Shown: positions 1 to 44,439 of the stretch, piece by piece
How the letters are laid out: each line of letters opens with the position of its first letter
Numbering within the stretch: position 1 is the stretch's first letter
Position numbers and translations under genes: made by a program
The notes under the pieces: model-generated
The model's input: the letters and a program-made list of their open reading frames with translations, nothing else
What the model was told of the DNA's origin: nothing
Databases searched by the model: none
Assembly: GCF_000340215.1 (NCBI RefSeq)
Contig: NW_006921542.1
Span: 493,610 to 557,609 of the forward strand
Source: Pseudocercospora fijiensis CIRAD86
Taxonomy: Eukaryota > Ascomycota > Dothideomycetes > Mycosphaerellales > Mycosphaerellaceae
Direction of reading: 5' to 3'
DNA length: 64,000 bases

Positions 1-248
1 TGTAGCCGGCAGCGTAGCCGGCATTTTTAGTCCTTAGTACTTATAGAATTTTCGAATCCTACTTAGGCTACGTAGTTGTATAAAGGTACTTATATAACCT
101 CAAATCTATAGACAATTAGCTAAGGGCACTAACTAATCAAAAGTATATACATATATATAAGGCATTATAGTTTAGTTCGGAAACTGTACTCCTTAGGTAT
201 AAATTTTATCCTTTCGTTTACGGTTCAATTCCCTAACTGCTTAGTAGA

Positions 249-773
249 ATGTCTTTATCTAGATCTAGGTAGAACTTATCGATTTCCGTCGAAGCTCTCT
301 TTAAGAAGTTCTAGCACTTTCCTACTAAACTATACTCTAATATTAAGTACTAGGATAGCTCCTCCCTCGATATTAGTACTATATACGAAACAGCTATAAG
401 GTAGCTCTATAGGGCGTTCTACTAGTTACTCGCTATACTACGGCCGAATGCTAGTTCGTTCCTTAGAACCCTAGGTTATTTAGCAGATATTAAGGATAGG
501 GTAGGCAGTGACTTCGTATTATATAAGGAAGTAGAGGCTGCTATAGAGGAGTCCTTTAACCTATAGAAGATAGTAAAAGATATAGAGGCAGCTATAAGTC
601 TAGGTACCTAGTTAAATTTCTAGTAGGTAGAGTATAAGGATATTTAGTAGGAGTATTAGGTAGAGTTGCGAAAGCAGGTATATAATATAGTCTAGAGAAC
701 AGGGATAATGCCTATAACTATAAGTATTAGGTTCTTTAATCTTCCTCCTTTTTTCCTTATTTTCTTTTTATAA
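249..773 (+). pseudogene. Unrecognised 174-codon frame in the left hAT copy
   Basis: ATG at 249 opens a frame that runs exactly 174 codons to TAA at 771. Its internal stops are mostly TAG, the product expected from RIP of TGG or CAG. The readable product is helical, with segments such as SISVEALFKKF and DIKDRVGSDFVLYKEVEAAI near the middle. I recognise no family. It lies next to the element end and is transcribed opposite to the other frames of this copy. A matching copy exists at 22961-23484. Confidence 0.5.
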
Positions 774-1074
774 AAATCCAAACTAATACAAATTAACTAG
801 AATGTCTATCTTCTTTTAGTTCTTTGTAAGACCTAGCAGCGTAGCCGGTAGCGTAGCCGGTAGCGTAGTCGGCCTTTTTACTCCTAAGCACTAACGGGTT
901 TTTCGAAGACTTCTATTCTATACGGCTAATAAAGTATACTATACTATATAGGTATGCTTAGAGAGTATTTAAAGCGCGGTATATAGCGCCGTATAACAGC
1001 GGCTTATTTCGTATATAGAAAAGCTTATAGACGATACTACGAACATCCTTCCTACTAGTATATCTATCCTATCT

Positions 1075-1745
1075 AGCACTATCTCAAATGTAGACATTCT
1101 AGCCTTTTAGAATCTAATCGAGTGCTTTGAAATCCTTGTCTATAATCGTTATACGCTTCGCGTAGATAGCTATAAGGTTGACCGCTAAAATAGTATTAGT
1201 ATAGTCCGAAAAGAGGTAGAAGAGAAATATATATTCGAAGATACGAACTAGGTAGGCTTCTATAGCCTCTTAAAGGGCGCCTATCGTAGGGGCTTAGAAG
1301 CGAAGGTCCGTTCTATAATCCTAGGCAATTTCGCGAATAAGTCGTTAGAAAGGAGCTTTGCGGATTAGGAGCTTAGAACTCTTCTAATACTACCGAATCT
1401 TACGGAGGGCTACGGCTAAAGAAGGATTAGTAAAAAGATAGTAAGAATACCGGCTACGCTACCGGCTACGCTACCGGCTACGCTACCGGCTACAAATAGG
1501 ACTTACTTCCTAGGCGCTATTAACGCTTTATACGATTGCTACTAGTAGTAGAAGCGCTAGTTGTCGTCTTACGTAGAGCCTTATCCGCCGTTATCTTACG
1601 CGGAGCCTTGCTCGCGACGCCCTTTCTAGTACCGGAGCTAGCGGTAGTAGTAGTAGCCCTCTTGCGTTAATATACTAGACTCTTTCTATTATTTCCGATC
1701 TTATTACGACCCGTAGAAGTAGCAGGTCCCTTCTTGCGAGGCGTC
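1075..1745 (-). pseudogene. Histone H3-like gene 1, left hAT copy (RIP-degraded)
   Basis: The minus-strand translation contains KAPRK in a Lys/Arg/Thr-rich tail, then TVALRKIR and LLIRKAPF, RLIREIA, DLRF, AIGAL, EAYLV and AKRITI in the order and spacing of the histone H3 tail, alpha-N helix and histone fold. Stops are TAG/TAA where TGG, CAG or CAA is expected. The first inferred intron ends ctttAG (about 1413-1418), a canonical acceptor that the right copy has lost. The N-terminal tail is ~40 residues longer than in canonical H3, starting around MPRKKGP-like sequence near 1743 (the start codon itself reads ACG). Histone H3 packages DNA in nucleosomes; whether this variant was ever functional is unknown. 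Confidence 0.85.
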
Positions 1746-2312
1746 GTAACTTAGTTAAGTAGACTCGCTATTATAAAAGTCGTCGAATTAAGGAAAAAAG
1801 TGCGTTACGAAGGTATATAAAGGCGCGCGCGGAGCGAGGGTATTACGGAGGTAGTAGATATAGAGCGTAGAGGTATAGGTATCGATACGAAGGTTGAAGA
1901 TAGCGAGAGAGGTAGTATCGCGGTATCGCTAGGCAATAGAGTAAGTTTCGCGCAAGCCTATATTATAGTAACGTTAGAGTAAGGAAAGAAGGCAGGTATA
2001 GCTAAAAAGGCAGGTACGGCTAAAAAGGCAGGTACGGCAGACTTTGAAACATAGCCGGTATATATAGCCGGCATAGTAATAGGCGAAAGCCTCCTTTTAA
2101 TAAATAGCCGGCGTAATAATAGTATCCTACTATAGTATAGATATTCTTTAGTAATGCCTTTACTAGCTATAGTAATCTTATAAGTAACCTAGGCCTATTG
2201 CTAGCAAATATAAGAAATATTAGGTAGGCTATACTAAACAAGCTAGTTATTTAGTAGGAAAAGGCCTACTACCGTCTCTATATGCCGGCTACGAGTGCCG
2301 GCTATCGCTCTA

Positions 2313-3041
2313 AATTCAACTCCGCCCTATCTCGGAGGCTAAGGTACCGAGCGGAAACCCTACAGCTTATATTTACTCGGTTATCGCGGAGCGCTTATAG
2401 GTAAGGTATTAGAAAAGAGTATAAAAAGTACGAGAAGAGTATCCTAGGATATAGGTCGTAAGTAAATAAGAGTAGTACGCCTAGTTATTTATATAGTACG
2501 TTACTCTATACGACTAAGAGCCTATATTATCTTATACTTCGCTTATAAGACCTCGACTCTACTAGTATACTATCGATCTCCTCCTCGGTCGCTAATACGC
2601 TGTCTTAATTCTTCTTCGAGTTGCCGGACTTAGTACGCATCTATAGCTATACAATAGCGCTACGTATTATAGAGAATTAACTCCGCCGTATCTCGAAGGC
2701 TAAGGTACCGAGCGGAAATCCTATAGCTTATATTTACTCGGTTATTGCGGAGCGATTATAGGTAAGGTATTAGAAAAGAGTATAAAAAGTACGAGAAGAG
2801 CATCCTAGGATATAGGTCGTAAGTAAATAAGAGTAGTACGCCTAGTTATTTATATAGTACGTTACTCTATACGACTAAGAGCCTATATTATCTTATACTT
2901 TGCTTATAAGACCTCGACTCTACTAGTATACTATCGATCTCCTCCTCGGTCGCTAATACGCTATCTTAATTCTTCTTCGAGTTGCCGGACTTAGTACGCA
3001 TCTATAGCTATACAATAGCGCTACGTATTATAGAGAATTTC
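2313..3041 (-). repeat. 361-bp tandem duplication, left hAT copy
   Basis: Two direct copies (about 2313-2675 and 2679-3041), both ending in the complement of ttctctataatacgtagcgc, mirror the duplication at 20731-21443. Because both arms have it, the duplication came before the split of the two element copies. Confidence 0.85.
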
Positions 3042-3429
3042 TCGTTAAAGTTTCTCTCTCGTAGGCTTACTATCTACCTCGTAGTATAGAGGATTAAAGT
3101 GCTAATACTAAAGAATCTCCTTATAGTTAGGATACTAGGGCTCCTTAGGACCTTTGTATTTTAGGTCTAAATAGAGACGTATTATAAAAGTTCTATCGCC
3201 CTTTCGCTTACTACCCGCTAGGTCGCGATATACGAGGAAACTAATCTAAATGTAGCTCGTCTCTATAATAGCTAGGTAAATATAGAGCGCTAGGTTTCTA
3301 CTTCGTACCTTAGATTTAGGGACGGCGCGGAGATAAAATCAGAAATGTAGCCGGTACCTATAGCCGGTAAAAGGATACGAAAATAGGCCTCCTCCTAGGT
3401 TAATCTAACGACTAAATACAATTTCCAAC

Positions 3430-3930
3430 TAATCCGCTATAAACCGACGCCGAATTTTAGCTAGAAGCTATATATCTTTATTTTAAAGAGTAACCCGCTT
3501 TATATAGATAGCAAGGAGGTTTAAAAGCTTAAGCTCGGTTACGAGAAATGCCTCTATAGCTTCCTAAAGAGCAATAATCGCCTTAGCCGTAAATCGTATA
3601 CTAGACCGAAAATCTAATATAATTTCTCGGACGAGTCGCTAGAAGGGAGTCTTAGGGATTAAAAGCTCGGTCCCTCTTTTGTTTTAGAAAAGCCGGATCT
3701 AGCGAAGGGTAATAGTACCTAGTTTAAAGCGCCGCTTCTTTATCGTCGAGTCCTACCTTATTCCCTTTCTTTTAATAGAAAGATAACTTTTCTTCGCGAT
3801 AGTCTTCGTCCGCCTACTCTTTTTAGCCTTCTCCTATCTATCTATAGCCTTCTTGTTTTTCGGTACTATTTTCCGAGGAACCCCCTTCCTTTATATATAC
3901 TATAGAGAGCCTTACTCTTCCGATATCTCG
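3430..3930 (-). pseudogene. Histone H3-like gene 2 (divergent), left hAT copy
   Basis: Minus-strand mirror of the gene at 19800-20340, with the same divergent H3-fold motifs and basic N-terminal region. RIP stops fall at equivalent glutamine and tryptophan codons. It lies about 1.7 kb from H3-like gene 1 in the same orientation within this copy. Confidence 0.75.
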
Positions 3931-4384
3931 TTCTCGCTACGGTTTCCCTATACTTAGCTTGCTTTACCCTTGCCCTTTAGCCTCTAAAGATATTTATCTA
4001 TGCGTTTAGGCGACGAGGGTATATCGGTAGGACCTAGAAAATTAATAAGTATATAATCGTAAGGAGATATTAATGCTTCTTACCTTCTAGAATAAATAGT
4101 CTTCTATTAAACCGCCTTAGTAGGTTATCGTTAGATTCGAATAAAGGATAGTAGCTTAAGGAAGGGGAGGTAGCCGGCTTAGGAAGGCCCGAAGAGCCGA
4201 ATCCTTAAGGTATATTTATCTTTAAGAATATAGGGAAAGGGAAGAAGGAGAGGAAGAGCGAATAGAGAATTAGAAATAGTCCGTAGGTAAGCGGGGTCGG
4301 TTGCTATAGTAACTAGTCTATTTAGGTCCTAGGAATTCGAAATACATTTCGGATATATACCGGCTATATACGCCGGCTATATTA

Positions 4385-6760
4385 CTTTATACGTAAACGC
4401 TTCGTCTCCTTAAAGCTACTCTAAGCCTATATACGTTTCCGCTTCTCGACCTAGTATCGCCTTCTACCTCCGCCCTCCTCCTCTTCGTTATCGCTAATTA
4501 GGGTTTCGCTTAGACTAAATTTCGTATTCTCTTCGCGCTCCTAGGTTTCTTCGATCTTAAGGTTTTCTAATTCCTCGATTAACTCCTTAAGTATAATCTT
4601 TAGTAACCTGCCTTAGCGATTCTAGTAGAGGAGATAGTATCGGAATACTATAATAGATTCGAAGGTAGTAGGCGAGTATATTCGATTAAAGCGGCCCTAG
4701 TAACGAGCGATACTAAAAGACCTCTTATAGCCTATATCTACGCTCGGGATAGCGAGGACGTCCCGAGCGACCGACGCTATCGTTAGAAACTTAGGCTCTA
4801 ACCGCTACTATATAGCGAGAATATCGTCTCCGAATTCGTCTAAAAGACCGGTAAGATCTAGAGATTATTAGCCCTCTTTCCGAGCCTACGGGTTTATACT
4901 TACTCGCGCGCCGATAGAGATCGAACTCTTCTTTATTTACTTTAGTAGTTGCTTCCTCTTCTGCCTCTACTTCCTACCTGCGAAACAGGTATAATATCGG
5001 AGCCTTCTAAACCTTCTTTTTCTTTATAGGAGCTATATTTAGACTAGTTTCTTTCCGACGCTCGTAGAATATCTTTTCTAGAATAGTCTAGTAATACTTC
5101 GGCTATACCTCGTCCGCCTTCTATTCCGGCCTCTACTAGTATATATCCTTTTCTACCGGGTTAAGCAAGTACGTAACGCTATAGATATCCCCGAACGACT
5201 TAAAGGTAGCACTATAATATTTATATAACTTAGTATAGGAGGTGTCTATAGCTTTCGTTATAGCTACTTTCTAGGGAACGCTCTTCTTAGCTAGCTTAGC
5301 TACGGTTTCCTCGAGGTCGTTAAAGAGCTAGTTATAGTACGTAAAAACAAGGTAGATCGTCGGTCCTCGGGTTCTTCTAATCGTAGTAGTAACCTTCGCG
5401 TAATACTTACTAATATCGACGAGATACTCTACTTAGCGCTATTCGGCGGCGGTAAGGCCGAGCTACTTAATACCCTCGGAACTCTAATAGATCTCGAGAG
5501 CGGTACGTAAAGTATACCCCCTCGTAACTATATAGAAAGTCGAATCGAACCGGGTCTTAACGTCTTAGATAAAACGGAGTAGGCGCTAAGGAGGCCGCTT
5601 TTGCTATCGCTTATTCTATACGATATTCTAGGTATCGGTTTTAGAGCGCTCGATTAGGTTCTTTTAAATAGCCTCGAATCGGTTATATCTCTATAAGCTC
5701 GAGTTCGTATATATTACTAGACGACGAAGCTAGAGAAAAAGAGTTAGAACTATACTAGGTTGCCGGCTATAGGTGCCGGCTATAGACAAAAGTTATACCT
5801 TATACAAAACGAGAGCGAGGCTCTCTACCTTATCCCGTCTTATTGCTATAATAAGTTTCTCGACTTTTAACTTTGCTTTATCCTTATCTAGGATCTTCTA
5901 TTAGTCGTCGTTTAATAGTGCAATTTTAAGCGTCTTAAATAGGGCTCGGATCGCGATTTGAACTATATAAGCGAGGTAGGGAAACTTCTATAGGGATATA
6001 ACTAGTATCGACGTCGGCTCCGATTTAATAGGGCTAGGGCTATTACTAGGCTCCTCTTTATCGTTATTATCGTACGTATTATCGTACGTATCCGGAATTG
6101 TAGCGAGCTTAATATTCGGAAGATTAAGCTAGATTATAGATATTATAATCTCCCCTACGTACTCTACCCTATCGATACGATTAGTAATTTTAAAGACATA
6201 TACGAGTAAATTGTATATATAACGCCTTATATAATATTCGATTATTACTAGTATTGTCCGTAGTAATCGAGATTAGTTTCGTTATTACGCTAACCCTATC
6301 TATTACCGTATAGATAAGCTTCGCTATATCCTTACTAGTATAGGAACCTAGAATTTTAGGGAATCCGATTATAAGTTCCTAGAGTTTCTAATCCGAATTA
6401 ATAAAGTATAGTATAATCGAGAGGAAGGAGGCTCTTATAGTCCGGCTTAACTAGCTATCGATAGTAATAAGCTACTCGGCGAGTATAACGGAGGATCTCC
6501 CGAANNNNNNNNNNNNNNNNNNNNNNNNNNNNNNNNNNNNNNNNNNNNNNNNNNNNNNNNNNNNNNNNNNNNNNNNNNNNNNNNNNNNNNNNNNNNNNNN
6601 NNNNNNNNNNNNNNNNNNNNNNNNNNNNNNNNNNNNNNNNNNNNNNNNNNNNNNNNNNNNNNNNNNNNNNNNNNNNNNNNNNNNNNNNNNNNNNNNNNNN
6701 NNNNNNATAGCTAGTATTTCTATATAGACTCCCTTTCGTAGAAGTCTTCCGGAAGACCGT
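4385..6760 (-). pseudogene. hAT-family transposase relic, left copy (contains assembly gap)
   Basis: Minus-strand mirror of the right-copy transposase. The DNASNN core corresponds to about 6246-6275 and the dimerisation region to about 4620-4900. The 5' part falls in or beyond the N run at 6505-6706. RIP stops are frequent. Confidence 0.82.
6505..6706. other. Assembly gap (202 N)
   Basis: This run of N lies where the right arm has about 17164-17270, a segment of only ~110 bp that contains a C10/T6 homopolymer run. The gap size is therefore probably an estimate, and the missing bases can be guessed from the other arm. Confidence 0.95.
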
Positions 6761-7009
6761 TTGTAGCTAGTATTTCGTTTGCTAGTTGCTTAAAGTCTTC
6801 GGGGGAGAAATCGGTAGCCTTTAATCCTAGAGCTTCCTTAAGCGTAGCCTATAATAATTAGCTAGACCTCTACGGTTAATTCAAGTAGCCGGAATCTATA
6901 GCCGGAATCTGTAGCCGGCAGCTATAGCTAGCATTTTAGAAGACGTACCTCTTTCTAGAACGCTATATCTGTATTAACTCTCCTCTCTCCTTAAGATTCC
7001 CGATACCGT

Positions 7010-8850
7010 TTAGAATAGAGATAGTTCGTAGGCGATAAGTTCCTATCCCCTAGTTTTAGGTGTTTTAAGATTAAACCGTAGAAGTTATAGACAATTACTA
7101 GTTAACCTTTAAGTCGAGAAGTCGTATAACGGTATAATGCCCCCTCTATAAAGAACTTCTAGAATATATCCGTTCGCTCCTTACTCCCCTATCGCATCGA
7201 GTACTTCCGGAGTTTATACTCCTTTAAACGTAAGTATAAAGGGAACTATATCTTATAGACCTATTAATTAAACTACTCTATATACTCGGGTTTCTAAAGA
7301 TACGCCTAGCTAGCCTTTTCGAAGATTTCCGGGTTAATACTCGATGTTCTTATATCTCCGAACAACCTTCTACTTAGACTCCGTAAAGGTAAGGACTAGG
7401 TAGTAGTACCCTATAATAAATTCCTACTACTAGGATTCGGAGAGGATAAATCTAGCCCTAGTCGTCGTCTAGGACTCGATAGGCTCGGCCGCTCGAAGGT
7501 AAGTATACGACCTCCTCTTAACGTTATCGTAATCTCGCTCGTATACTAGACTATTTCGACTATCGTCTCGTTATTACCCTTCCTAGTATAGCGCCTAGTA
7601 TATATACAATGTCGGTCGGTATGTTTTAAGGTTTCGTACGGTAAGGTAAGGACTTAGGAGTAGCAGATGTATACTAGCAGCTATAGGGAAACACCCTTTC
7701 TTTTATAGTATCGTATCGTTAGGAATAGCTAGGTAGTAAATAGCTAGCTACCTTTTTTTTTGTTTCCTAGCCACCTAACCACTAGATTTTTTTTTCCTAG
7801 CTACCCTAGCTAGCCTAACTACTAGAATTTCTTTCCTAGCTACCCCAACTACCCAAATTTTGCCTTCTATACGGCGGCTCTCTCCTACTAACGGAACCGA
7901 GCTACTATACCTAACGAATCTAAGCTCGTTTTTAGTCTTAACCTATCCTCTTTCGGTATAAGATACTCGATAAGCAAATGCTTAGGCCGAGTCTAACTAC
8001 GAAACCTAAGACTAACTAATAGCTCTATTAACTAATCCTAATCCTCGAACTCCTTCCGCTTCTTAGTAAAGACCTTAAAGAGCGCTCGATCTTCTTCGGG
8101 TACCTACGGAGTAGTCGAGATAAAGCCGTATCGCTAAAATAGGTAATCCTTCGGAGCCTTATATAGAGATTTAGAGAATTCTAACGCTAACCTATCCTAC
8201 TAGTAGCTTAGATTCCGGATATAAGCCCTCTCTACCTTAGTAAAGATTTTATATAGTAGTAGCACTCTACCTTCGAGAAACGCTTTCTATTTAACTATTA
8301 GTATCTGCCGGCTACAAACGCCGGCTATATATACCGAGTATAGAATAATTACTTATATCCCTTCCTCCTATAGTAATACTTCTACCGTCCCTAGATACCT
8401 AGCCCCGATCGCATTAATTATAAGCTACTTTGCCTTTATAGACGTAAAGGCTTCGCTCTAATACTAATAAAGAAACTTCTACTCTATATCGAGGATATAA
8501 AGACGACTAGTCTCGATTCTAATCCTTACTAGCTTTTCGTAGTAGCTTTAACTATAATTTTCTAGATTAATAGGACTTATACCTTAGCCCTTTACTAGTA
8601 TCTCGTCTCTTTAACTATACTCGATCTACTTCTAGCGCTTATCGTCTATAGTATTAGGCTTTAAGACTATACCTATTACTAGATCGACGTATAGTATCTC
8701 CTCGCTTTTTTTAGTTCCTTTATTCGTAGTATTAAGCTCTATCGCGGCATCCTAAACTCTAGTATTGTTATTCTTAGCTATCTAAATATCTCCGTTACTA
8801 TCGGTCGTATCGATAGAGGTAGCGGCTATAGGTCTAAATGCTATTAGTTA
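7010..8850 (-). pseudogene. Unrecognised RIP-degraded coding regions, left hAT copy
   Basis: Mirror of the right-arm frames at 15005-15960 and 16120-16880, on the minus strand. The same readable segments and GCCGGC separators are present (about 8305 and 8868). No function is recognised. Confidence 0.45.
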
Positions 8851-8924
8851 ACGTATTAAAGAAAAATATGCCGGCTATAGCTGCTAGCTATAGCTACCGG
8901 CTATAGCTACTAGCTACGGCCGCT

Positions 8925-9260
8925 AGCTAGATTAACTTACGCTACTAGAACTTTACGCTCGAAAACTAGCCGCAATTCTTTCCTCCTCTTAGCTTTCTCT
9001 TAGATTGTCTTCTTATTCTAACCTTTACTTTTTTCTATAAGCGCTAGCTATCGATAGAATACCTTATTCCGCGCCTTTCTTCTCTTATCTTTAGCTCTTT
9101 TATCCTTATCTATCTTCTTCTTTCTCTCGCGGTCTCGTACGGAATTCTTCTTCGTAGAGTACTCCTCTTTAGTCTTACGCTTTTTAGTTAGACGCTTAGG
9201 CAAAACAAACTCGCGGTCTTTAGTTCTATCTTCTATTTAGCGCGCGGCGCGCTTCTCTCT
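8925..9260 (-). pseudogene. Lys/Arg-rich basic frame, left hAT copy
   Basis: Mirror of the frame at 14590, with the same charged composition and almost the same stops. Function unrecognised. Confidence 0.42.
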
Positions 9261-9410
9261 TACTATTATAAAGGAAAGGGGCGGGGGCGTAGCGTATAGT
9301 AGTTATTATCGGTATAGGTATAGAGAAAGAAGTTAAAAGTATAAGAATATCGCGAAGCCCTAATTGTTACCGCCTATATAACGTTATATAGGTAAGCTTT
9401 CGCAACTACG

Positions 9411-9693
9411 GTAACTACGCCCCGGCAATAGTAACTACGCCCTAGTAACGGTAACTACGCCCTAGCAACGGCAACTACGCCCTAATAACAGTAATAAAGC
9501 GTAGTAAATACAACCTAGTAACTATTATAGCCGGCAATCGTAGCCGGCAGTCGAATAAGAGTGTCCTTATAGTAAAACTACGCCCTAGTAACGGCAACTA
9601 CGCCCTAGTAACGGTAACTACGCCCTAGCAACGGCAAAAGAGCGTAGTAAATGTAACAGAGTTACTATTATAGCCGGCAATCGTAGCCGGTAG
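9411..9693 (-). repeat. Subterminal 20-bp tandem repeats, left hAT copy
   Basis: Repeated units of GTAACTACGCCCTAGTAACG type (20 bp, variable) occur in two clusters, separated by a direct repeat that includes gaataagagtgtccttatag. Clustered subterminal repeats are the usual transposase-binding arrays of hAT elements; that function is inferred here. Confidence 0.7.
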
Positions 9694-9831
9694 TCGAATA
9701 AGAGTATCCTTATAGTAAAACCAATACAGTCTCTAGTTTAAACTAGGAATCTATATAGTTCGAAAAAACCAAACCAGAACTAGGGAGCTAGTTCGCCGCT
9801 AAGAAACTAAACTATATACGTTTAGTAGTTC

Positions 9832-9856
9832 GGAAACCGAACTACTGCGGGGTCTA
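9832..9856 (-). repeat. TIR of the left hAT copy
   Basis: On the minus strand this reads TAGACCCCGCAGTAGTTCGG and continues into the same subterminal sequence as 13974 onward. It is followed by gtttaaat (9857-9864), the only flank of this copy visible in the window. Confidence 0.8.
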
Positions 9857-13973: not shown

Positions 13974-14006
13974 TAGACCCCGTAGTAGTTCGGTTTCCGA
14001 ACTACT
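13974..14006 (+). repeat. TIR and adjoining hairpin of the right hAT copy
   Basis: TAGACCCCG is followed by a self-complementary segment, agtagttcgg-ttt-ccgaactact (about 13984-14006), so the terminus can fold back on itself. The same layout is seen in the left copy and, with changes, in the short element at 33225. Confidence 0.8.
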
Positions 14007-14139
14007 AAACGTATATAGTTTGGTTTCCTAGCGGCGAACTAGCTCCCTAGTTCCGGTTTAGTTTTTTCGAACTATATAGATTCCTAGTTTAAACTAGAGA
14101 CTATATTAGTTTTACTATAAGGACACTCTTATTCGAACT

Positions 14140-14452
14140 ATATTAGTTTTACTATAAGGACACTCTTATTCGACTATCGGCTACGATTGCCGGCTATAAT
14201 AGTAACTCTATTATATTTACTACGCTCTTTTACCGTTACTAGGGCGTAGTTGCCGTTACTAGGGCGTAGTTTTACTATAAGGACACTCTTATTCGACTGC
14301 CGGCTACGATTGCCGGCTATAATAGTTACTAGGTTATATTTACTACGCTCTATTGCCGTTACTAGGGCATAGTTGCCGTTGCTAGGGCGTAGTTGCTATT
14401 ACTAGGGCGTAGTTGCTATTACCGGGGCGTAGTTACCGTAGTTACGAAAGCT
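14140..14452 (+). repeat. Subterminal 20-bp tandem repeats, right hAT copy
   Basis: This is the mirror of the left array: units of GCCGTTACTAGGGCGTAGTT type around 14235-14275 and 14352-14445, interspersed with a repeated block containing actataaggacactcttatt. Within hAT elements such arrays flank the TIRs. Confidence 0.7.
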
Positions 14453-14589
14453 TACCTATATAACGTTATATAGGCGGTAACAATTAGGGCTTCGCGATAT
14501 TCTTATACTTTTAACTTCTTCCTCTATACCTATACCGATAATAACTACTATACGCTACGCCCCCGCCCCTTTTCCTTATAATAGTAAGA

Positions 14590-14925
14590 GAGAAGCGCGC
14601 CGCGCGCTAAATAGAAGATAGAACTAAAGACCGCGAGTTTGTTTTACCTAAGCGTCTAACTAAAAAGCGTAAGACTAAAGAGGAGTACTCTATAAAGAAG
14701 AATTCCGTACGAGACTACGAGAGAAAGGAGAAGATAAATAAGGATAAAAGAGCTAAGGATAAGAGAAGAAAAGCGCGGAATAAAGCATTCTATCGATAGC
14801 TAGCGCCTATAGAAAAAAGTAAAGGTTAGAATAAGAAGATAACCTAAAAGAAGGCTAAGAGAAGGAAAGAATTACGGCTAGTTTTCGAGCGTAAAGTTCT
14901 AGTAGCGTAAGTTAATCTAGCTAGC
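14590..14925 (+). pseudogene. Lys/Arg-rich basic frame, right hAT copy
   Basis: The frame encodes a strongly basic helical stretch (KRLTKKRKTKEEYSIKKN, then KDKRAKDKRRKARNKAFYR) interrupted by a few TAG/TAA codons. Composition suggests a nuclear, nucleic-acid-binding or coiled-coil tail. I recognise no family. It is the first frame inside the subterminal repeats, upstream of the hAT transposase and on the same strand. Confidence 0.45.
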
Positions 14926-15004
14926 GGCCGTAGCTAGTAGCTATAGCCGGTAGCTATAGCCGGCAGCTATAGCCGGTATATTTTTCTTTAATACGTTAAC
15001 TAAT

Positions 15005-15960
15005 AGTATTTAGACCTATAGCCGCTACTTTTATCGATACGACCGATAGTAACGGAGATGTTTAGATAGCTAGGAACAACGATACTAAAGTTTAGGATAC
15101 CGCGAAAGAGCTTAATACTACGAATAAAGGGACTAAAAAAAGCGAGGAGATACTATACGTCGATCTAGTAATAGGTATAGTCTTAGGGCCTAACGCTATA
15201 GACGATAAGCGCTAGGAGTAGATCGAGTATAGTTAAAGAGACGAGATACTAGTAACGGGCTAAGGTATAAGTCCTATTAATCTAGAAAATTATAGTCCTA
15301 GCTACTACGAAAAGCTAGTAAGGATTAGAATCGAGACTAGTCGTCTTTATATCCTCGATATAGAGTAGAAATTTCTTTATTAGTATTAGAGCGAAGCCTT
15401 TACGTCTATAAAGGCAAAGTAGCTTACGATTAATACGATCGGGGCTAGGTATCTAGGGACAGTAGAAGAGTTACTAAAGGAGGAAGGGGTATAGGTAATT
15501 ATTCTATACTCGGTATATATAGCCGGCGTTCGTAGCTAGTAGATACTAATAGTTAAATAGAAAGCGTTTCTCGAGGATAGAGTACTACTACTATATAAAA
15601 TCTTTACTAAGGTAGAGAGGGCTTATATCCGGAATCTAAGCTACTAGTAGGACAGGTTAGCGTTAGAATTCTCTAAATCTCTATATAAGCCTCCGAAGGA
15701 TTACCTATTTTAGCGATACGGCTTTATCTTAACTACTCCGTAGGTACCTAACGAAGCTCGAGCGCTCTTTAAAGTCTTTACTAAGAAGCGGAAGGAGTTC
15801 GAGGATTAGGATTAGTTAATAGAGCTATTAGTTAGTCTTAGGTTTCGTAGTTAGACTCGGCCTAAGTATTTGCTTATCGAGTATCTTATACCGAAAGAGA
15901 ATAGATTAAGACTAAAAACGAGCTTAGATTCGTTAAGTATAGTAGCTCGGTTCCGCTAGT
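15005..15960 (+). pseudogene. Unrecognised RIP-degraded coding region, right hAT copy
   Basis: There are two consecutive frames. Near 15005-15500 readable pieces include KSEEILYVDLVIGIVLGP and YEKLVRIRIETSRLYILDI. After a GCCGGC motif, 15546-15960 gives FLEDRVLLLYKIFTKVERAY and EARALFKVFTKKRKEFED. Nearly all stops are TAG at likely Trp/Gln codons, so these are decayed genes, perhaps two exons of one gene or two genes. No family is recognised. Confidence 0.5.
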
Positions 15961-16119
15961 AGGAGAGAGCCGCCGCACAGAAGGCAAAATTCAGGCAGTT
16001 AGGGTAGCTAGGAAAGAAATTCCAGCAGTCAGGCCAGCTAGAACAGCTAGGAAAAAAAAATCTAGCAGCCAGGTAGCTAGGAAACAAAAAAAAAGGCAGC
16101 TAGCCATTTACTACCTAGC

Positions 16120-16880
16120 TATTCCTAACGATACGATACTACAAAAGAAAGGGTATTTCCCTATAGCTACTAGTATATATCTACTACTCCTAAGTCCTTA
16201 CCTTACTATCCGAAACCTTAAAACATACCGACCGATATTGTATATATACTAGGCGCTATACTAGGAAGGGTAATAACGAGACGATAGTCGAAATAGTCTA
16301 GTATATAAGCGAGATTACGATAACGTCGAGAGGAGGTCGTATACTTACCTTCGAGCCTATCGAGTCCTAGACGACGATTAGCGCCAGATTTATCCTCTCC
16401 GAATCCTAGTAGTAGGAATTCATTATAGGGTACTACTACCTAGTCCTTACCTTTACGGAGTCTAAGTAGAAGGTTGTCTAGAGATATAAGAATATCGAGT
16501 ATTAACCCGGAAATCTTCGAAAAGGCTAGCTAGGCGTATCTTTAGAAACCCGAGTATATAGAGTAGTTTAATTAATAGGTCTATAAAATATAGTTCCCTT
16601 TATACTTACGTTCGAAGGAGTATAAACTCCGGAAGTACTCGATACGATAAGGTAGTAAGGAGCGAACGGATATATTCTAGAAGTTCTTTATAAAGGGGGC
16701 ATTGTACCGTTATACGACTTCTCGACTTAAAGGTTAACTAGTAATTGTCTATAACTTCTACGGTTTAATCTTAAAACACCTAAAACTAGGGGATAGGAAC
16801 TTATCGCCTACGAACTATCTCTATTCTAAACGGTATCGGGAATCTTAAAGAGAGAGGAGAGTTAATACAGATATAGCGTT
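16120..16880 (+). pseudogene. Unrecognised RIP-degraded frame before the hAT transposase
   Basis: Readable pieces are found in more than one frame, for example FILSES and EFIIGYYYLVLTFTESK, then RSKEYKLRKYSI, KFFIKGALYRYTTSRLKG and LVIVYNFYGLILKHLKLGD near 16600-16800. It could be a separate gene or the N-terminal part of the transposase with introns. The sequence does not decide this. Confidence 0.4.
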
Positions 16881-16905
16881 CTAGAAAGAGGTACGTCTTC
16901 TAAAA

Positions 16906-16983
16906 TACCGGCTATAGCTACCGGCTATAGCTACCGGCTATAGCTACCGGCTATAGCTACCGGCTATAGCTACCGGCTATAGA
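16906..16983 (+). repeat. 13-bp tandem repeat (6 units)
   Basis: Six perfect or near-perfect units of TACCGGCTATAGC sit in the spacer before the transposase. This is a local expansion of the dispersed GCCGGC motif. The equivalent left-arm spacer (6885-6935) has only a few diverged units, so the array length differs between the copies. Confidence 0.85.
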
Positions 16984-17179
16984 TTTCGGCTACTTCAATT
17001 AACCGTAGAGATCCAGCTAATTATTATAGGCTACGCTTAAGGAAGCTCTAGGATTAAAGGCTACCGATTTCTTACCCGAAGACTTTAAGTAACTAGTAAA
17101 CGAAATGCTAGCTATAAACGGTCTTCCGGAAGACTTCTACGAAAGGGAGTCTATATAGAAGATATACCTATATCTTATA

Positions 17180-19386
17180 AACTATCCCCCCCCCCCTTTT
17201 TTCTTAGCGCGATAACCTAGCGTATTATATTCGAAAAGAATAAAGAGGCTACGTTAGACGATATTCGGGAGATCCTCCGTAATACTCGCCGAGTAGCTAT
17301 TACTATCGATAGCTAGTTAAGCCGGACTATAAGAGCCTCCTTCCTCTCGATTATACTATACTTTATTAATTCGGATTAGAAACTCTAGGAACTTATAATC
17401 GGATTCCCTAAAATTCTAGGTTCCTATACTAGTAAGGATATAGCGAAGCTTATCTATACGGTAATAGATAGGGTTAGCGTAATAACGAAACTAATCTCGA
17501 TTACTACGGACAATGCTAGTAATAATCGAATATTATATAAGGCGTTATATATACAATTCACTCGTATATGTCTTTAAAATTACTAATTGTATCGATAGGG
17601 TCGAGTACGTAGAGGAGATTATAATGTCTATAATCTAGCTTAATCTTCCGAATATTAAGCTCGCTATAATTCCGGATACGTACGATAATACGTACGATAA
17701 TAACGATAAAGAGGAGCCTAGTAATAGCCCTAGCCCTATTAAATCGGAGCCGACGTCGATACTAGTTATATCCCTATAGAAGTTTCCCTACCTCGCTTAT
17801 ATAGTTTAAATCGCGATCCGAGCCCTATTTAAGACGCTTAAAATTGCACTATTAAACGACGACTAATAGAAGATCCTAGATAAGGATAAAGCAAAGTTAA
17901 AAGTCGAGAAACTCGTTATAGTAATAAGACGGGATAAGGTAGAGAGCCTCGCTCTCGTTTTATATAAGGTATAACTTTTATCCGTAGCCGGTACCTATAG
18001 CCGGCAATCTAGTATAGTTCTAACTCTTTTTCTCTAGCTTCGTCGTCTAGCAATATATACGAACTCGAGCTTATAGAGATATAACCGATTCGAGGCTATT
18101 TAAAAGAACCTAATCGCGCGCCCTAAAACCGATACCTAGAATATTGTATAGAATAAGAGATAGTAAAAGCGGCCTCCTTAGCGCCTACTCCGTTTTACCT
18201 AAGACGTTAAGACCTAGTTCGATTCGACTTTCTATATAGTTATAAGGGGATATACTTTACGTACCGCTCTCGAGATCTATTAGAGTTCTAAGGGTATTAA
18301 GTAGCTCGCTCTTACCGCCGCCGAATAGCGCTAAGTAGAGTATCTCGTCGATATTAGTAAGCATTACGCGAAGGTTACTACTACGATTAGAAGAACCCGA
18401 GGACTAACGATCTACCTTGTCTTTATATACTATAACTAGCTCTTTAATAAGCTCGACGAAACCGTAGCTAAGCTAGCTAAGAAGAGCGTTCCCTAGAAAG
18501 TAGCTATAACGAAAGCTATAGATACCTCCTATACTAAGTTATATAAATATTATAGTACTACCTTTTAGTCGTTTAGGGATATCTATAGCGTTACGTGCTT
18601 ACTTAACCTAGTAGAAAAGGATATATACTAGTAGAAGCTAGAATAGAAGGGGGACGAGGAATAGCCTAAGCATTACTAGACTATTCTAGAAAAGATATTC
18701 TACGAGCGTCGGAAAGAAACTAGTCTAAATATAGCTACTATAAAGAAAAAGAAGGTTTAGAAGGCTCCGATATTATACCTATTTCGTAGGTAGGAAGTAG
18801 AGGCAGAAGAGGAAGCAACTATTAAAGTAAATAAAGAAGAGTTCGATCTCTATCGGCGCGCGGGTATATACTAAACCTATAGGCTCGGAAAGAGGGCTAA
18901 TAATCTCTAGATCTTACCGGTCTTCTAGACGAATTCGGAGACGATATTCTCGCTATATAGTAGCGGTTAGAGCCTAAGTTTCTAACGATAGCGTCGGTCG
19001 CTCGGGACGTCCTCGCTATACTAAGTATAGGTATAGGCTATAAGAGGTCTTTTAGTATCGCTCGTTACTAGGGCCGCTTTAATCGAATATACTCGCCTAC
19101 TACCTTCGAATCTATTATAGTATTCCGATACTATCTCCTCTACTAGAGTCGCTAAGGTAGGATACTAAAGATTATACTTAAGGACTTAATCGAGGAATTA
19201 GAAAACCTTAAGATCGAAGAAACCTAGGAGCGCGAAGAGAATACGAAATTTAGTCTAAGCGAAACCCTAATTAGCGATAACGAAGAGGAGGAGGGCGGAG
19301 GTAGAAGGCGATACTAGGTCGAGAAGCGGAAACGTATATAGGCTTAGAGTAGCTTTAAGGAGACGAAGCGTTTACGTAGAAGGTAA
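17180..19386 (+). pseudogene. hAT-family transposase relic, right copy
   Basis: The core near 17280-17560 reads ITIDS...SRTIRASFLSIILYFINSD...ELIIGFPKILGSYT...ISITTDNASNN, the RNase H-like catalytic region of fungal hAT transposases. The segment at 18885-19150 reads LLDEFGDDILAI, EPKFLTIASVARDVLAI and IGIGYKRSFSIARY, the C-terminal hAT dimerisation domain. An acidic stretch and a basic KRKR tail follow, ending at TAA 19384-19386. The enzyme would cut and paste DNA between TIRs, leaving 8-bp duplications. Internal stops are of RIP type. An N-terminal BED-type zinc finger was not recognised, and introns or frame changes between the core and C-terminus were not resolved. Confidence 0.88.
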
Positions 19387-19799
19387 TATAGCCGACGTAT
19401 ATAGCCGGTATATATCTTTAATATATTCCGAATTCCTAGGACTTAAATAGACTAGTTGCTATAGCAACCTACCCCGCTTACCTACGGACTATTTCTAATT
19501 CTCTATTCGCTCTTCCTCTCCTTCTTCCCTTTCCCTATATTCTTAAAGATAAATATGCCTTAAGGATTCGGCTTTTCGGGCCTTCCTAAGCCGGCTCCTT
19601 CCCCTTTCTTAAGCGACTATCCTTTATACGAATCTAACGATAACCTACTAAGGCGGTTTAATAGAAGACTATTTGTTCTAGAAGGTAAGAAGTATAAATA
19701 TCTCCTTACGATTATAGGCTTATTAATTTTCTAGGTCCTACCGATATATCCTCGTCGCCTAAACGCGTAGATAAATATCTTTAGAGTCTAAAGGGTAAG

Positions 19800-20340
19800 G
19801 GTAAAGTAAGCTAGGTATAGGGAGACCGTAGCGAGAACGAGATATCGGAAGAGTAAGACTCTCTATAGTATATAAGAAGGAAGGGGGTTCCTCGGAAAAT
19901 AGTACCGAAAAATAAGAAGGCTTTAGGTAGATAGGAGAAGGCTAAAAAGAGTAGGTAGACGAGGGCTATCGCGAAGAAAAGTTATCTTTCTATTAAAAAA
20001 AAGGGAATAAGGTAGGACTTAACGATAAAGAAGCGGCGCTTTAAACTAGGTACTATTACCCTTCGCTAGATCCGGCTTTTCTAAAATAAAAGCGGGACCG
20101 AGCTTTTAATCCCTAAGACTCCCTTCTAGCGACTCGTCCGAGAAATTATATTAGATTTTCGGTCTAGTATACGATTTACGGCTAAAGCGATTAGTACTCT
20201 TTAGGAAGCTACGGAGGCATTTCTAGTAACCGAGGTTAAGCTTTTAAACCTCCTTACTATCTATACGAAGCGGGTTACTCTTTAAAATAAAGATATATAG
20301 CTTCTAGCTAAAATTCGGCGTCGGTTTATAGCGGATTAGT
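19800..20340 (+). pseudogene. Histone H3-like gene 2 (divergent), right hAT copy
   Basis: One continuous frame without an apparent intron. A Lys/Arg-rich N-terminal stretch contains VPRKIVPKNKKAL (compare KAPRKQLASKAAR of H3). It is followed by KRRFKLGTITLR, GTELLIPKTPF, RLVREIILDFRSSIRF, EATEAFLV, YTKRVTL and NKDI. Order and spacing match H3 from the alpha-N helix to alpha-3, with no length change between EAFLV and KRVT. It is far more divergent than gene 1, as expected of a fast-evolving or CenH3-type variant (inference). Interruptions are TAG or TAA at positions that are Gln in H3. The true start is not visible. Confidence 0.8.
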
Positions 20341-20424
20341 TGGAAATTATATTTAGTCGTTAGATTAACCTAGGAGGAGGCCTATTTTCGTATCCTTTTA
20401 CCGGCTATAGGTACCGGCTATATT

Positions 20425-21445
20425 TCTAATTTTATCTCCGCGCCGTCCCTAAATCTAAGGTACGAAGTAGAAACCTAGCGCTCTATATTTACCCGGCTAT
20501 TATAGAGACGAGATACATTTACATTAGTTTCTTCGTATATCGCGATCTAGTAGATAGTAAGCGAAAGGGCGATAGAACGTTTATAATACGTCTCTATTTA
20601 GATCTAAAATATAAAGGTCCTAAAGAGCCCTAGTATCCTAACTATAAGGAGATTCCTTAGTATTCGCACTTTAATCCTCTATACTACGAGGTAGATAGTA
20701 AGCCTACGAGAGAGAAACTTTAACGAGAAATTCTCTATAATACGTAGCGCTATTATATAGCTATAGATACGCACTAAGTCCGGTAACTCGAAGAAGAATT
20801 AAGATAGCGTATTAGCGACCGAGGAGGAGATCGATAGTATACTAGTAGAGTCGAGGTCTTATAAGCGAAATATAAGATAATATAGGCTCCTAGTTATTTA
20901 GAGTAACGTACTATATAAATAATTAGGCGTGCTACTTTTATTTACTTACGACCTATATCCTAGGATACTCTTTTCGTACTTTTTATACTCTTTTCTAATA
21001 CCTTACCTATAATCGCTCCGCGATAACCGAATAAATATAAGCTATAGGATTTCCGCTCGGTACCTTAGCCTTCGAGATACGGCGGAGTTAATTCTCTATA
21101 ATACGTAGCGCTATTACATAGCGATAAATACGTACTAAGTCCGGTAACTCGAAGAAGAATTAAGATAGCGACCGAGGAGGAGATTAATAGTATATTAGTA
21201 GAGTCGAGGTCTTATAAGCGAAGTACGAGATAATATAGGCTCTTAGTCGTATAGAGTAACGTACTATATAAATAACTAGGCGTGCTGCTCTTATTTACTT
21301 ACGACCTATATCCTAGGATACTCTTCTCGTACTTTTTATACTCTTTTCTAATACTTTACCTATAAGCGCTCCGCGACAACCGAGTAAATATAAGCTATAG
21401 GGTTTCCGCTCGGTACCTTAGCCGCCGAGATAGGGCGGAGTTGAA
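20425..21445 (+). pseudogene. Unrecognised frame with a 361-bp tandem duplication, right hAT copy
   Basis: A decayed frame reads KSKVRSRNLALYIYPAI, then FIIRLYLDLKYKGPKEP and PLYYEVDSKPTREKL, interrupted by RIP-type stops. Its 3' part (about 20731-21091) is repeated directly at 21092-21443, both blocks starting ttctctataatacgtagcgc. It lies between the two H3-like genes. I do not recognise the product. Confidence 0.5.
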
Positions 21446-21998
21446 TTTAGAGCGATAGCCGGCACTCGTAGCCGGTATATAGAGACGATAGTAGGCCTTT
21501 CCCTACTAAATAACTAGCTTATTTAGTATAGCCTACCTAATATTTCTTATATTTCCTAGCAATAGGCCTAGATTACTTATAAGATTACTATAGCTAGTAA
21601 GGGCATTACTAAAGAATATCTATACTATAGTAGGATACTATTATTACGCTAGCTATTTATTAAAAGGAGGCTTTCGCCTATTACTATACTAGCTATATAT
21701 GCCGGCTATATTTCAAAGTTTGCCGTACCTGCCTTTTTTAGCCGTATCTGCCTTCTTTCCTTACTCTAACGTTACTATAATATAGGCTTACGCGACGCTT
21801 ACTATATTGCCTAGCGATACCGCGATACTACCTCTCTCGCTATATTTAACCTTCGTATCGATATCTATACCTCTACGGTCTATATCTACTATCTCCGTAA
21901 TACCCTCGCTCCGCGCGCGCTTTCGTATACCTTCGTAACGTACTTCTTTCCTTCATTCGACGACTTTTATAATACCGAGTCTACTTAACTAAGTTACG
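21446..21998. other. Spacer between unknown frame and H3-like gene 1
   Basis: It holds two GCCGGC motif sites (about 21450 and 21700) and short imperfect repeats of the type tgccgtacctgcctttttta. I see no gene. It would contain the promoter of the H3-like gene. Confidence 0.5.
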
Positions 21999-22665
21999 AT
22001 ACTTCGCAAGAAGGGACCTACTACTTCTACGGGTCGTAATAAGACCGGAAATAGTAGAACGAGTATAGTATATTAATATAAGAAGGCTGCTGCTACTACC
22101 GCTAGTTACGGTACTAGAAAGGGCGTCGCGAGTAAGGCTCCGCGTAAGATAACGGCAGGTAAGGCTCTACGTAAGACGACGACTAGCGCTTCTACTACTA
22201 GTAATAATAATCGTACGAAGCGTCGATAGCGCCTAGGAAGTAAGTCCTATTTATAGCTAGTAGCGTAGCCGGTAGCGTAGCCGGCATTCTTACTATCTTT
22301 TTACTAATCCTTCTTTGGCCGTAGCCCTCTATAAGATTCGGAAGTATTAGAAGAGTTCTAATCTCCTAATCCGTAAAGCTCCTTTCTAACGACTTATTCG
22401 CGAAATTGCCTAGGATTATAGAACGGACCTTCGCTTCTAAGCCTCCGCTATAGGCGCCCTTTAAGAGGCTATAGAAGCCTACCTAGTTCGTATCTTCGAA
22501 TATATATTTCTCTTCTATCTCTTTTCGGACTATATTAATACTATTTTAGCGGTCAACCTAATAGCTATCTACGCGAAGCGTATAACGATTATAGATAAGG
22601 ATTTCAAAGCATTCGATTAGATTCTAAAAGGCTAGAATGTCTATATTCGAGATAGTACTAGGTAG
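21999..22665 (+). pseudogene. Histone H3-like gene 1, right hAT copy (two introns, RIP-degraded)
   Basis: Exon 1 (about 21999-22239) encodes a long basic tail with RKGVASKAPRK. Intron 1 (22240-22318) begins GTAAGT, has an actaat branch site and ends TGG here (TAG in the left copy). Exon 2 (22319-22501) encodes TVALYKIRKY, SSNLLIRKAPF, RLIREIA, DLRF, AIGAL and EAYLVRIFE. Intron 2 (22502-22549) begins ATATAT, explained by RIP of a GTATAT donor, and ends TTTTAG. Exon 3 gives NLIAIYAKRITI and a short tail. Both inferred introns join in frame. Stops in the frame are TAG/TAA at expected Trp/Gln codons. The product would be ~170-180 residues against ~136 for canonical H3, mainly because of the tail. 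A CENP-A-like role is possible but cannot be told from the sequence. Confidence 0.87.
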
Positions 22666-22960
22666 GATAGATATTCTAGTAGGAAGGATATTCGTAGTAT
22701 CGTCTATAAGCTTTTCTATATACGAAATAAGCCGCTGTTATACGGCGCTATATACCGCGCTCTAAATACTCTCTAAGTATATATATATAGTATAGTATGC
22801 TTTATTAGCCGTACGGAATAGAAGTCTTCGGGAATCCCGTTAGTACTAAGGAGTAAAAAGGCCGGCTACGCTGCCGGCTACGCTACTAGCTACGCTACTA
22901 GGTTTTTTAAAAAACTAAAAGAAGATAGACATTCCGGTTAATTTACATTAGTTTGGATTT

Positions 22961-23484
22961 TTATAAAAAGAAAATAGGGAAAAATAAGGAAGGTTAAAGA
23001 GCCTAATACTTAAAGTTATAGGTATTATCCCTGTTTTCTAGACTATATTATATACCTGCCTTCGTAACTCTACCTAATACTCCCTATAAATATCCTTATA
23101 CTCTACCTACTAGAAATTCAACTAGGTACCTAGACCTATAGCTGCCTCTATATCGTTTACTATCTTCTATACGTTAAAGGACTCCTCTATAGCAGCCTCT
23201 ACCTCCTTATATAATACGAAGTTACTACCTACCCTACCCTTAATATCTCCTAAATAACTAAGAGTTCTAAGGAACGAACTAGTATTCGGCCTTAGTATAG
23301 CGAGTAACTAGTAGAACGTTATATAGAGCTGCTTTATAGCTCTTTTATATACTATACCGATACCAAGGGAGGAGCTATCCTAGTACTTAATATTAGAGAA
23401 TAGTTTAGTTAGAAAGTGTTAGAACTTCTTAAGGAGGGCTTCTAGGGAAATCGATACGTTCTACCTAGATCTAGATAATAACAT
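22961..23484 (-). pseudogene. Unrecognised frame, right-arm copy of the 249-773 gene
   Basis: Mirror copy of the frame at 249. ATG is preserved as cat at 23482-23484 and the stop as tta at 22961-22963. The copy is about one base shorter, so it carries an indel. No function is recognised; conservation of ATG, stop and frame in both copies argues that it was once a real gene. Confidence 0.5.
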
Positions 23485-23849
23485 TCTACCGAGCAGTTAG
23501 GGAATTAAATAGCGAGCGAAAGGATAAAATTTATACCTAATAAGTGCAGTTTCTAAACTAAACTATAATAGCTTATATATATATATGCTTTTAATTAGTT
23601 AGTGCCCTTAGCTAATTGTCTATAGATTTAGGGTTATATAAGTACCTTCCTATAACTGAAAAATGCCGGCTACGCTACCGGCTACACTCTCGTATCTTAT
23701 AAAGGGCTTACTTCGAGTTACGTAGAGATTCTTACACTTCTTAGAAACCGATAAATTCTATAGTTCGAACTAGCTAATCCTATAGTTGCTTAGCAAACCA
23801 ACCTAAACTAAACTAGATCTTCGGCTTAGTAAACTAAACTAAACTAACC

Positions 23850-23878
23850 CGAACTACTATAGGGTCTAGATTTATCGT
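23850..23878 (-). repeat. Outer TIR of the right hAT copy
   Basis: Read on the minus strand this is TAGACCCTATAGTAGTTCGG, matching the start at 13974 with two transition-type differences. The preceding run of aaactaaacta units is also present just inside the right end of the short element at 33225-33581. Confidence 0.8.
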
Positions 23879-33224: not shown

Positions 33225-33581
33225 TAGACCCCGTAGTAGTTCGGTTTGCGAACTATAGAACGTATATAGTTTAGTTTCTTAGCGGTACCCCTCTAGTTTA
33301 GTTCTGGTTTGGTTTTTTACCCCGCTAGTCTAAGCCGGTTTCCGAGAAAATCCGACTAAACTACGACGGTATACGACGATATACGACGATATACGACGAC
33401 CTCGGATCTAGTCCGGAGGCCCTATATTATATGCGCTATACGGTTGTATCTGTATTTCGGGCTATTTAGACGTGTTTTAGGTCGGGTTTTTGTCCGTAGC
33501 CGGTACGTAGCCGGCAAACCGGTCCGTATACCGGTTCCTTAGTAAACTAAACTAAACTAACCCGGACTACCGCGGGGTCTA
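33225..33581 (+). mobile_element. 357-bp non-autonomous hAT element (MITE-like) derived from the large element
   Basis: It starts TAGACCCCGTAGTAGTTCGG and ends ACTACCGCGGGGTCTA. The first ~100 bp align with the start of the large element at 13974 (gtatatagttt, agttctggtttggtttttt) and the last ~45 bp with its end (cttagtaaactaaactaaac). A GTAGCCGG pair is kept inside, together with three tacgacgata-type repeats. It has no coding capacity, so it would have depended on the hAT transposase of the large copies. Insertion split the unclassified frame of 31800-35960. Confidence 0.92.
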
Positions 33582-42260: not shown

Positions 42261-42428
42261 CACTATCCGCTGCCGGTCGAGGCTATACCTGTTTTCGGTC
42301 AAGCCAGCGATGGAAAGAAGCCCGAGGGGTAATATTCAACGATCTTGCAGCGGCGGGTGACATTTTATGGGTGGCGTGGCTCTCTTCCCTACTAATGAGG
42401 CCTAGGGCCTTGCGAATCGGACGTCTTC

Positions 42429-42707: not shown

Positions 42708-42719
42708 GACATGTAATCG

Positions 42720-44314: not shown

Positions 44315-44439
44315 GGTACTGTTCAGTAACAGATTCGGCCGAGGATGTGAAGGTGATGTCTGTTTACGAGGTGCATGTCAGAACGGTTAGAAGTTAGAAG
44401 TAGCAGGGACGGGAGCGTAGGAAAGCGGACGGGCATCGC

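What the first reader, a model, noticed from the sequence alone, without database searches (positions are those of the whole stretch)
19800..22665. Two histone H3-like genes carried as cargo by a ~10-kb hAT transposon
Within the TIR-bounded element at 13974-23878, two separate frames show H3 motifs in correct order. Gene 1 has KAPRK in the tail, then LLIRKAPF, RLIREIA, DLRF, AIGAL, EAYLV and AKRITI. Gene 2 has TELLIPKTPF, RLVREII, EAFLV and KRVTL. Both recur in the inverted copy. Gene 1 has an N-terminal tail ~40 residues longer than canonical H3, and gene 2 is strongly divergent, as in CenH3-type variants. I know of no described hAT element carrying H3 variants. A transposon-encoded nucleosome component could affect chromatin at the element, centromere behaviour or silencing (inference).
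Basis: partly seen in the sequence, partly recalled or inferred. Interest (0 to 1): 0.93.

Follow-up and report, generated by a model that had tools for sequence, protein, structure and literature searches.

The report
Dead histone genes inside a transposon
A jumping gene in what is very probably a banana-leaf fungus carries two histone H3-like genes wrecked by the fungus's own mutation defence; this was published in 2019, but one of the two genes appears to keep introns, which contradicts the published account of how it was captured.

Summary
The element runs 13974-23868 (9,895 bp, not to 23878), with TAGACCC terminal inverted repeats, transposase remains and two RIP-damaged H3-fold genes (Pfam Histone 1.7e-19 and 3.7e-20, stops masked). 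Both recur in the inverted copy.

It is not new. Element and host-H3 features match Pseudocercospora fijiensis, for which Dhillon et al. 2019 (PMC6710886) described this ~9.5-kb hAT with one or two H3-like genes (784 copies, RIP-inactivated) and the same in five relatives. Manning et al. 2013 (PMC3538342) described an H3-bearing hAT in Pyrenophora tritici-repentis. The CenH3 suggestion is not supported.

What I add is a correction. The 2019 paper infers capture of an intron-free transcript and calls a 16-aa difference an insertion. In gene 1 that stretch is 48 nt in all 23 distinct copies examined, with branch-site and acceptor motifs, a GT donor left in 3, and its removal gives H3 spacing. 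A second intron lies one codon from a host H3 intron. Gene 2 shows none. Between two element subfamilies, transversions in the pooled globular exons favour third codon positions (p=0.0028, uncorrected), a hint of selection inside the element before RIP.

The parts
13974..23868 (+). RIP-damaged hAT-type element, 9,895 bp, carrying transposase remains and two H3-like genes
   Evidence: TIRs; RIP signature
13974..13993 (+). left terminal inverted repeat
23849..23868 (-). right terminal inverted repeat, two transition differences from the left one
17221..17560 (+). transposase remains; a hAT-like catalytic pattern is read by eye only (recalled motif, no database hit)
   Evidence: no hAT family hit here
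18898..19320 (+). transposase C-terminal part resembling the hAT dimerisation region, below Pfam's cut-off
   Evidence: PF05699: this window copy 0.16, 12.2 bits; 9 of 9 copies scanned match at E<=1, first member 0.0051, 17.0 bits against 21.4
19555..20336 (+). gene 2: H3-like gene without visible introns; ATG at 19555, N-terminal extension; extension and fold are in different frames in the window copy but in one frame in the subfamily-B copy L003
20037..20336 (+). gene 2 histone fold
   Evidence: PF00125 3.7e-20
20729..21442 (+). tandem duplication (353-361 bp spacing) between the two H3 genes
   Evidence: families D5 and D10
21990..22239 (+). gene 1 exon 1: basic tail (start uncertain) ending ...RLG plus first base of the next codon
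22240..22318 (+). gene 1 intron 1, 79 nt here
   Evidence: 22 distinct copies matched: donor GTAAGT 21, acceptor TTTAG 21 (this window copy reads TTTGG), lengths 79-116 nt (one duplicate locus removed)
22319..22501 (+). gene 1 exon 2, the best-conserved H3 part (LLIRKAPF ... EAYLVRIFE)
   Evidence: PF00125 1.7e-19
22502..22549 (+). gene 1 intron 2, 48 nt, very probably the published '16-aa insertion'
   Evidence: 23 distinct copies: 48 nt in 23, acceptor TTTTAG in 23, donor GT in 3 and AT in 20 (one duplicate locus removed)
22550..22663 (+). gene 1 exon 3: (S)VNLIAIYAKRITI..., 3' end uncertain
1..9856 (-). second, inverted copy, running past the window start; stretch matching 21740-22800 (gene 1) at about 936-1998, stretch matching 19400-20500 (gene 2) at about 3268-4368

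Best explanation
This is one copy of the H3-carrying hAT family already published for P. fijiensis. A hAT transposon acquired H3 coding sequence between its terminal repeats, multiplied to hundreds of copies, and was then mutated to death by RIP. My refinement is that the two H3 genes differ in history. Gene 2 shows no intron and is a divergent H3 with an N-terminal extension, compatible with capture of a spliced transcript. Gene 1 carries two introns of its own, so it came from an intron-bearing gene (or gained both introns later) and is not a plain transcript copy. Shown: architecture, intron signals, RIP damage, linkage of both genes in the copies looked at. Inferred: that the proteins were made and under some selection while the element was active. 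What they did is inference only; the likeliest role is H3-type variants deposited in nucleosomes, of uncertain benefit to the element.
For: Published family: same length, TIR/TSD pattern, two H3-like copies per full element, a 16-aa difference between them, intact three-exon host H3 on scaffold 6, RIP of the other copies. Here: 9,895 bp; intact H3 on contig C6, three exons as read from its frames; 772 first-look histone candidates; perfect 8-bp TSDs in 8 of 20 fetched copies; gene 1 1.84-2.46 kb downstream of gene 2 on the same strand in 47 of 47 pairs within 6 kb, 3.6 pairs expected by chance. Introns. Purine/pyrimidine state between subfamilies: 1 change in 126 intron sites, 55 in 508 exon sites, 24 in 412 flanking sites. 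Coding constraint: pooled globular exons 25/199 third-position against 22/397 first+second-position changes, one-sided p=0.0028; frame-shifted controls p=0.91 and 0.98; three flanks p=0.27, 0.53, 0.56. Gene 2 fold changes less than its extension (11/300 against 34/446, p=0.028).
Against: No RNA evidence of splicing. Intron 2 has a GT donor in only 3 of 23 distinct copies (the rest AT, as RIP of TpG would give). The constraint signal comes mostly from exon 3 (p=0.0036); exon 2 (0.33), gene 2 fold (0.12), gene 1 tail (0.93) and gene 2 extension (0.57) are not significant alone; nothing is corrected for multiple tests; gene 1 exons change faster than flanks (p=0.009). Only 4 subfamily-B copies were compared with 15 of subfamily A.
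Confidence: 0.85

Rival explanations
1. Published version: an intron-free H3 transcript was captured once, both H3-like copies derive from it, and the 16-aa difference is an insertion that arose before amplification; passive cargo.
For: PMC6710886 reports exon-exon junctions without introns after its own correction of RIP. Gene 2 here shows no intron. Gene 1 and gene 2 group together, though weakly (0.73).
Against: Gene 1 has branch and acceptor motifs, and in some copies a GT donor, at the borders that leave H3 spacing, in both subfamilies; intron 1 lengths are 79, 91, 102, 103 and 116 nt, some not multiples of three apart.
Confidence: 0.15
2. The H3 genes were functional element genes that helped it transpose or resist silencing, selected inside the element (transposon-encoded histone variants).
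For: The 4 subfamily-B loci also have both genes; third-position bias in pooled globular exons; another H3-bearing hAT with expressed H3L in P. tritici-repentis.
Against: Tail motifs are not conserved between subfamilies; several regions show no constraint; gene 1 exons change faster than flanks; no functional data.
Confidence: 0.3
3. Gene 2 is a captured CenH3.
For: Several of the best protein-database hits of the L003 copy are annotated as CenH3, but the length rule excluded canonical 136-aa H3s there. The tree puts the two genes beside the CenH3 clade with weak support 0.56.
Against: No loop-1 insertion, RF not RW, outside the CenH3 clade (clade support 0.96); the 60 PDB matches shown of 176 are H3.
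Confidence: 0.03

Closest known systems
H3-carrying hAT family of Pseudocercospora fijiensis and five Mycosphaerellaceae (Dhillon et al. 2019, PMC6710886; text parts 1-5 of 7 read, abstract to methods)
   Same: Element length, TIRs with two RIP-variable sites, 8-bp TSD, two H3-like copies, a 16-aa length difference, RIP of the copies, intact host H3.
   Different: Paper reports no introns and no dimerisation domain; here gene 1 shows two introns and the transposase C-terminus gives a sub-threshold PF05699 match in 9 of 9 copies scanned.
H3L hAT element of Pyrenophora tritici-repentis (Manning et al. 2013, PMC3538342; passages and part 1 of 2 of section 20 read)
   Same: hAT transposon with a divergent H3 between its TIRs; H3L matches neither H3 nor CenH3 completely.
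   Different: 5.6 or 2.3 kb, one H3L per element, mostly intact and with ESTs; the 2019 paper found no similarity between the element sequences.
Host histone H3 (L001) and host CenH3 (L009) of the same assembly
   Same: Histone fold; gene 1 exon 2 is 78% (subfamily A copy L021, 54 sites) or 64% (subfamily B copy, 55 sites) identical to host H3.
   Different: Host H3 introns lie at TAR/K and KPG/T and none at FE/DTN. Host CenH3 reads RWQSQAI.

Membership tests
hAT superfamily | 8-bp target-site duplication | tested here: met
   perfect in 8 of 20 fetched copies; not in the window copy itself
hAT superfamily | short terminal inverted repeats | tested here: met
hAT superfamily | hAT transposase domains (DUF659, dimerisation region) | tested here: inconclusive
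   0 families on whole masked frames, both strands; C-terminal piece PF05699 under cut-off; 2019 paper reports a hAT domain in 277 of 471 elements
P. fijiensis H3-hAT family (2019) | ~9.5-9.9 kb, two H3-like copies differing by 16 codons, RIP-inactivated | tested here: met
   9,895 bp
Histone H3 | H3 histone fold | tested here: met
   PF00125 1.7e-19 and 3.7e-20 for the window frames; PDB H3 hits for pieces of other copies
Histone H3 | canonical conserved N-terminal tail | tested here: not met
   gene 1 tail reads (A/T)RKGVASKAPRK in most subfamily-A copies, differs in B; no ARKS context seen in gene 2
CenH3 / CENP-A | loop-1 insertion, W in the LRW motif, CenH3 clade | tested here: not met
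   (60-residue region, 39 sequences)
Transcript-derived retrocopy (gene 1) | absence of introns | tested here: not met
   sequence signals only, no RNA

The most novel reading that the evidence does not exclude
The two H3 genes were long-term, selected genes of the element: transposon-encoded histone variants with their own gene structures, one intron-bearing and one intronless with an extension, that the element used on its own chromatin (for example to resist H3-tail-based silencing), until RIP ended the family.
Probability: 0.25. Interest if true: 0.75.

Novelty: already known. Interest (0 to 1): 0.35.

Why it matters
The element is published, so the discovery itself is not new. The intron evidence matters because the published inference of transcript capture rests on the absence of introns. 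If the H3 genes have their own introns and were constrained in the element, H3-bearing hATs in two fungal groups become candidates for transposons that encode chromatin proteins for their own benefit.

Tried and rejected
Rejected: chance motif match; CenH3 identity. Led nowhere: Pfam on whole masked frames of the transposase region (0 families); protein-database search with the masked transposase (none of the 7,995 scored candidates reached E<=0.001); phmmer of open frames from L038 and L039, two other hATs of this genome, against the element frames (nothing listed at E<=1); DUF659 and dimerisation families over the genome (21 and 47 matches, not compared systematically with H3 positions). Protein search with the L003 copy of gene 2: 39 matches among 744 candidates, none above 54% identity; with gene 1 exon 2 of L020: 272 matches among 382 candidates, the 120 listed at most 73% identical. 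A predicted Peltula H3 (P0052) has an inserted stretch at the FE/DTN place that could be an unspliced intron; a lead only. A pattern search for the TIR had the wrong spacing and found nothing. Positive control: the last part of the transposase shows a third-position excess at p=0.055, the stretch before it none (p=0.84). In one search two of the ten compared loci (L005, L024) are one copy.

Full report
WHAT IS THERE. The window lies on contig C11 of a 73.9-Mb, 30-contig assembly. Positions 13974-23868 form a 9,895-bp element with TAGACCC... terminal inverted repeats. CpA and TpG are at 0.13 and 0.10 of expectation inside it, against 1.21 and 1.17 in the island at 37.5-44.5 kb, so the element is RIP-damaged. 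Masked pieces of other copies match PDB H3 chains: gene 1 exon 2 as in L020/L033 at 1.7e-22, gene 2 fold of L003 at 6.3e-27.

FAMILY. A genome search with Histone gave 772 first-look candidates, 150 scored; the best is the intact host H3 on C6. Gene 1 exon 2 gave 758 candidates, 150 scored. After dropping host genes (two rows and one row), 148 gene 2 and 149 gene 1 places remain, each with stops inside the match; 47 pairs lie within 6 kb, all 47 on one strand with gene 1 1.84-2.46 kb downstream, 3.6 expected by chance. These lists are only the best-scoring part of the family. One search listed 40 of 477 left-terminus candidates; I fetched 20 of the 39 that are not the window. Gene 2 was found in 15 of these 20 loci and gene 1 in 14 of 20, in both cases including L023, where they lie on the opposite strand. 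In 8 of 20 a right TIR lies within the 10 kb with a perfect 8-bp target duplication, and those 8 have both genes. The window copy has no matching duplication; its left flank shares 11 bases with that of L031 and then differs, which I cannot explain.

ALREADY PUBLISHED. Dhillon et al. 2019 (PMC6710886; outline and text parts 1-5 of 7 read) describe this family in P. fijiensis: 784 H3-like copies in 471 elements, 133 elements of 9.5-9.9 kb, 20-bp TIRs with two RIP-variable sites, 8-bp duplications, one or two H3-like genes per element, a 16-aa difference between the two, the original three-exon H3 on scaffold 6, and the same event in five related species. The host H3 here lies on C6 and reads as three exons. 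The organism name is thus inferred, strongly, though this assembly has 30 contigs and the paper names 56 scaffolds. Manning et al. 2013 (PMC3538342; passages and part 1 of 2 of section 20) reported an H3-bearing hAT in P. tritici-repentis with expressed H3L that matches neither H3 nor CenH3 completely. The listings of my searches showed no later paper on these introns, but no search used that word and the library lacks most subscription journals. PMC4981457 (P. fijiensis genome) I saw in passages only.

INTRONS. The 2019 paper infers capture of a transcript from absent introns. In gene 1 I find signals of two. One search examined 24 loci, but L011 and L030 are the same copy, so 23 are distinct. 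Intron 1 (22240-22318) was matched in 22 distinct copies (one has masked bases there): donor GTAAGT in 21, a TACTAAT-like branch site in 22, acceptor TTTAG in 21 (the window copy is the exception), lengths 79, 91, 102, 103 and 116 nt through a small internal tandem repeat. The splice makes RLGT-VALRKIRQY (as in L020), matching the host's KPGT-VALREIRRY; the host intron is one codon earlier. Intron 2 (22502-22549): 48 nt and acceptor TTTTAG in 23 of 23, donor GT in 3 and AT in 20, which fits RIP of TpG. Removing it leaves FE-SV-NL against FE-DT-NL of H3, so the published 16-aa insertion is very probably this intron. Gene 2 reads through the KPG/T and FE/DTN places without a break.

SELECTION. 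Four loci (on C12, C17, C20 and C11) form a second subfamily with both genes. RIP makes only transitions, so I compared 15 subfamily-A with 4 subfamily-B copies in purine/pyrimidine state, skipping columns that are mixed within a subfamily. Pooled globular exons (gene 1 exons 2 and 3, gene 2 fold) show 12/198, 10/199 and 25/199 changes at codon positions 1, 2 and 3 (one-sided p=0.0028). Shifting the frame gives p=0.91 and 0.98; three flanks give p=0.27, 0.53 and 0.56. Gene 2's fold changes less than its extension (11/300 against 34/446, p=0.028). Against this: exon 3 drives the pooled signal (0.0036), and the other parts alone are not significant (exon 2 0.33, gene 2 fold 0.12, gene 1 tail 0.93, gene 2 extension 0.57). 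Gene 1 exons change faster than flanks (55/508 against 24/412, p=0.009), while introns barely change (1/126). P values are uncorrected. I read this as a hint, not proof, that H3 proteins were maintained inside the element.

WHAT KIND OF H3. In a FastTree of the 60-residue exon-2 region (39 sequences; ten labelled CenH3 by me from their RW motif or record name), the CenH3s form a clade (0.96) that excludes both genes; gene 1 and gene 2 group at 0.73, and this pair sits beside the CenH3 clade at only 0.56. Identity to host H3: gene 1 78% over 54 sites in subfamily A (L021) and 64% over 55 in B; gene 2 57-60%. Gene 1's tail keeps an RK/KAPRK core with G where H3 has S10 in nearly all subfamily-A copies; subfamily B differs. 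A silencing-escape role is speculation.

TRANSPOSASE. Whole masked frames gave no Pfam hit. The C-terminal piece matches the hAT dimerisation region below cut-off in 9 of 9 scanned copies, chosen from 18 with coordinates; the window copy alone is weaker (0.16). The 2019 paper could not find this domain.

Noticed in passing
33225-33581: A 357-bp element with the same kind of TIRs and similar end sequence as the 9.9-kb hAT, flanked by perfect 8-bp duplications (GGACTACT): probably a short non-autonomous derivative.
   Followed up: partly
37500-44500: Island without RIP signature (CpA 1.21, TpG 1.17) between RIP-damaged repeats; one 274-aa frame at 43490-44314 (-) resembles 2EXR below cut-off.
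   Followed up: partly
40406-40745: 17-nt tandem repeat array inside the RIP-free island.
   Followed up: no
54606-55157: Open frame on the minus strand with an integrase core domain (rve, 4.6e-12): probably retrotransposon remains.
   Followed up: no
13966-13973: The 8 bases left of the window element equal the target duplication of copy L031 on another contig; 11 bases are shared, then the flanks differ. Unexplained.
   Followed up: partly
22240-22318 and 16902-16990: Small tandem repeats with a TAGCCGG/CCGGCTA core recur in several parts of the element, including gene 1 intron 1.
   Followed up: no
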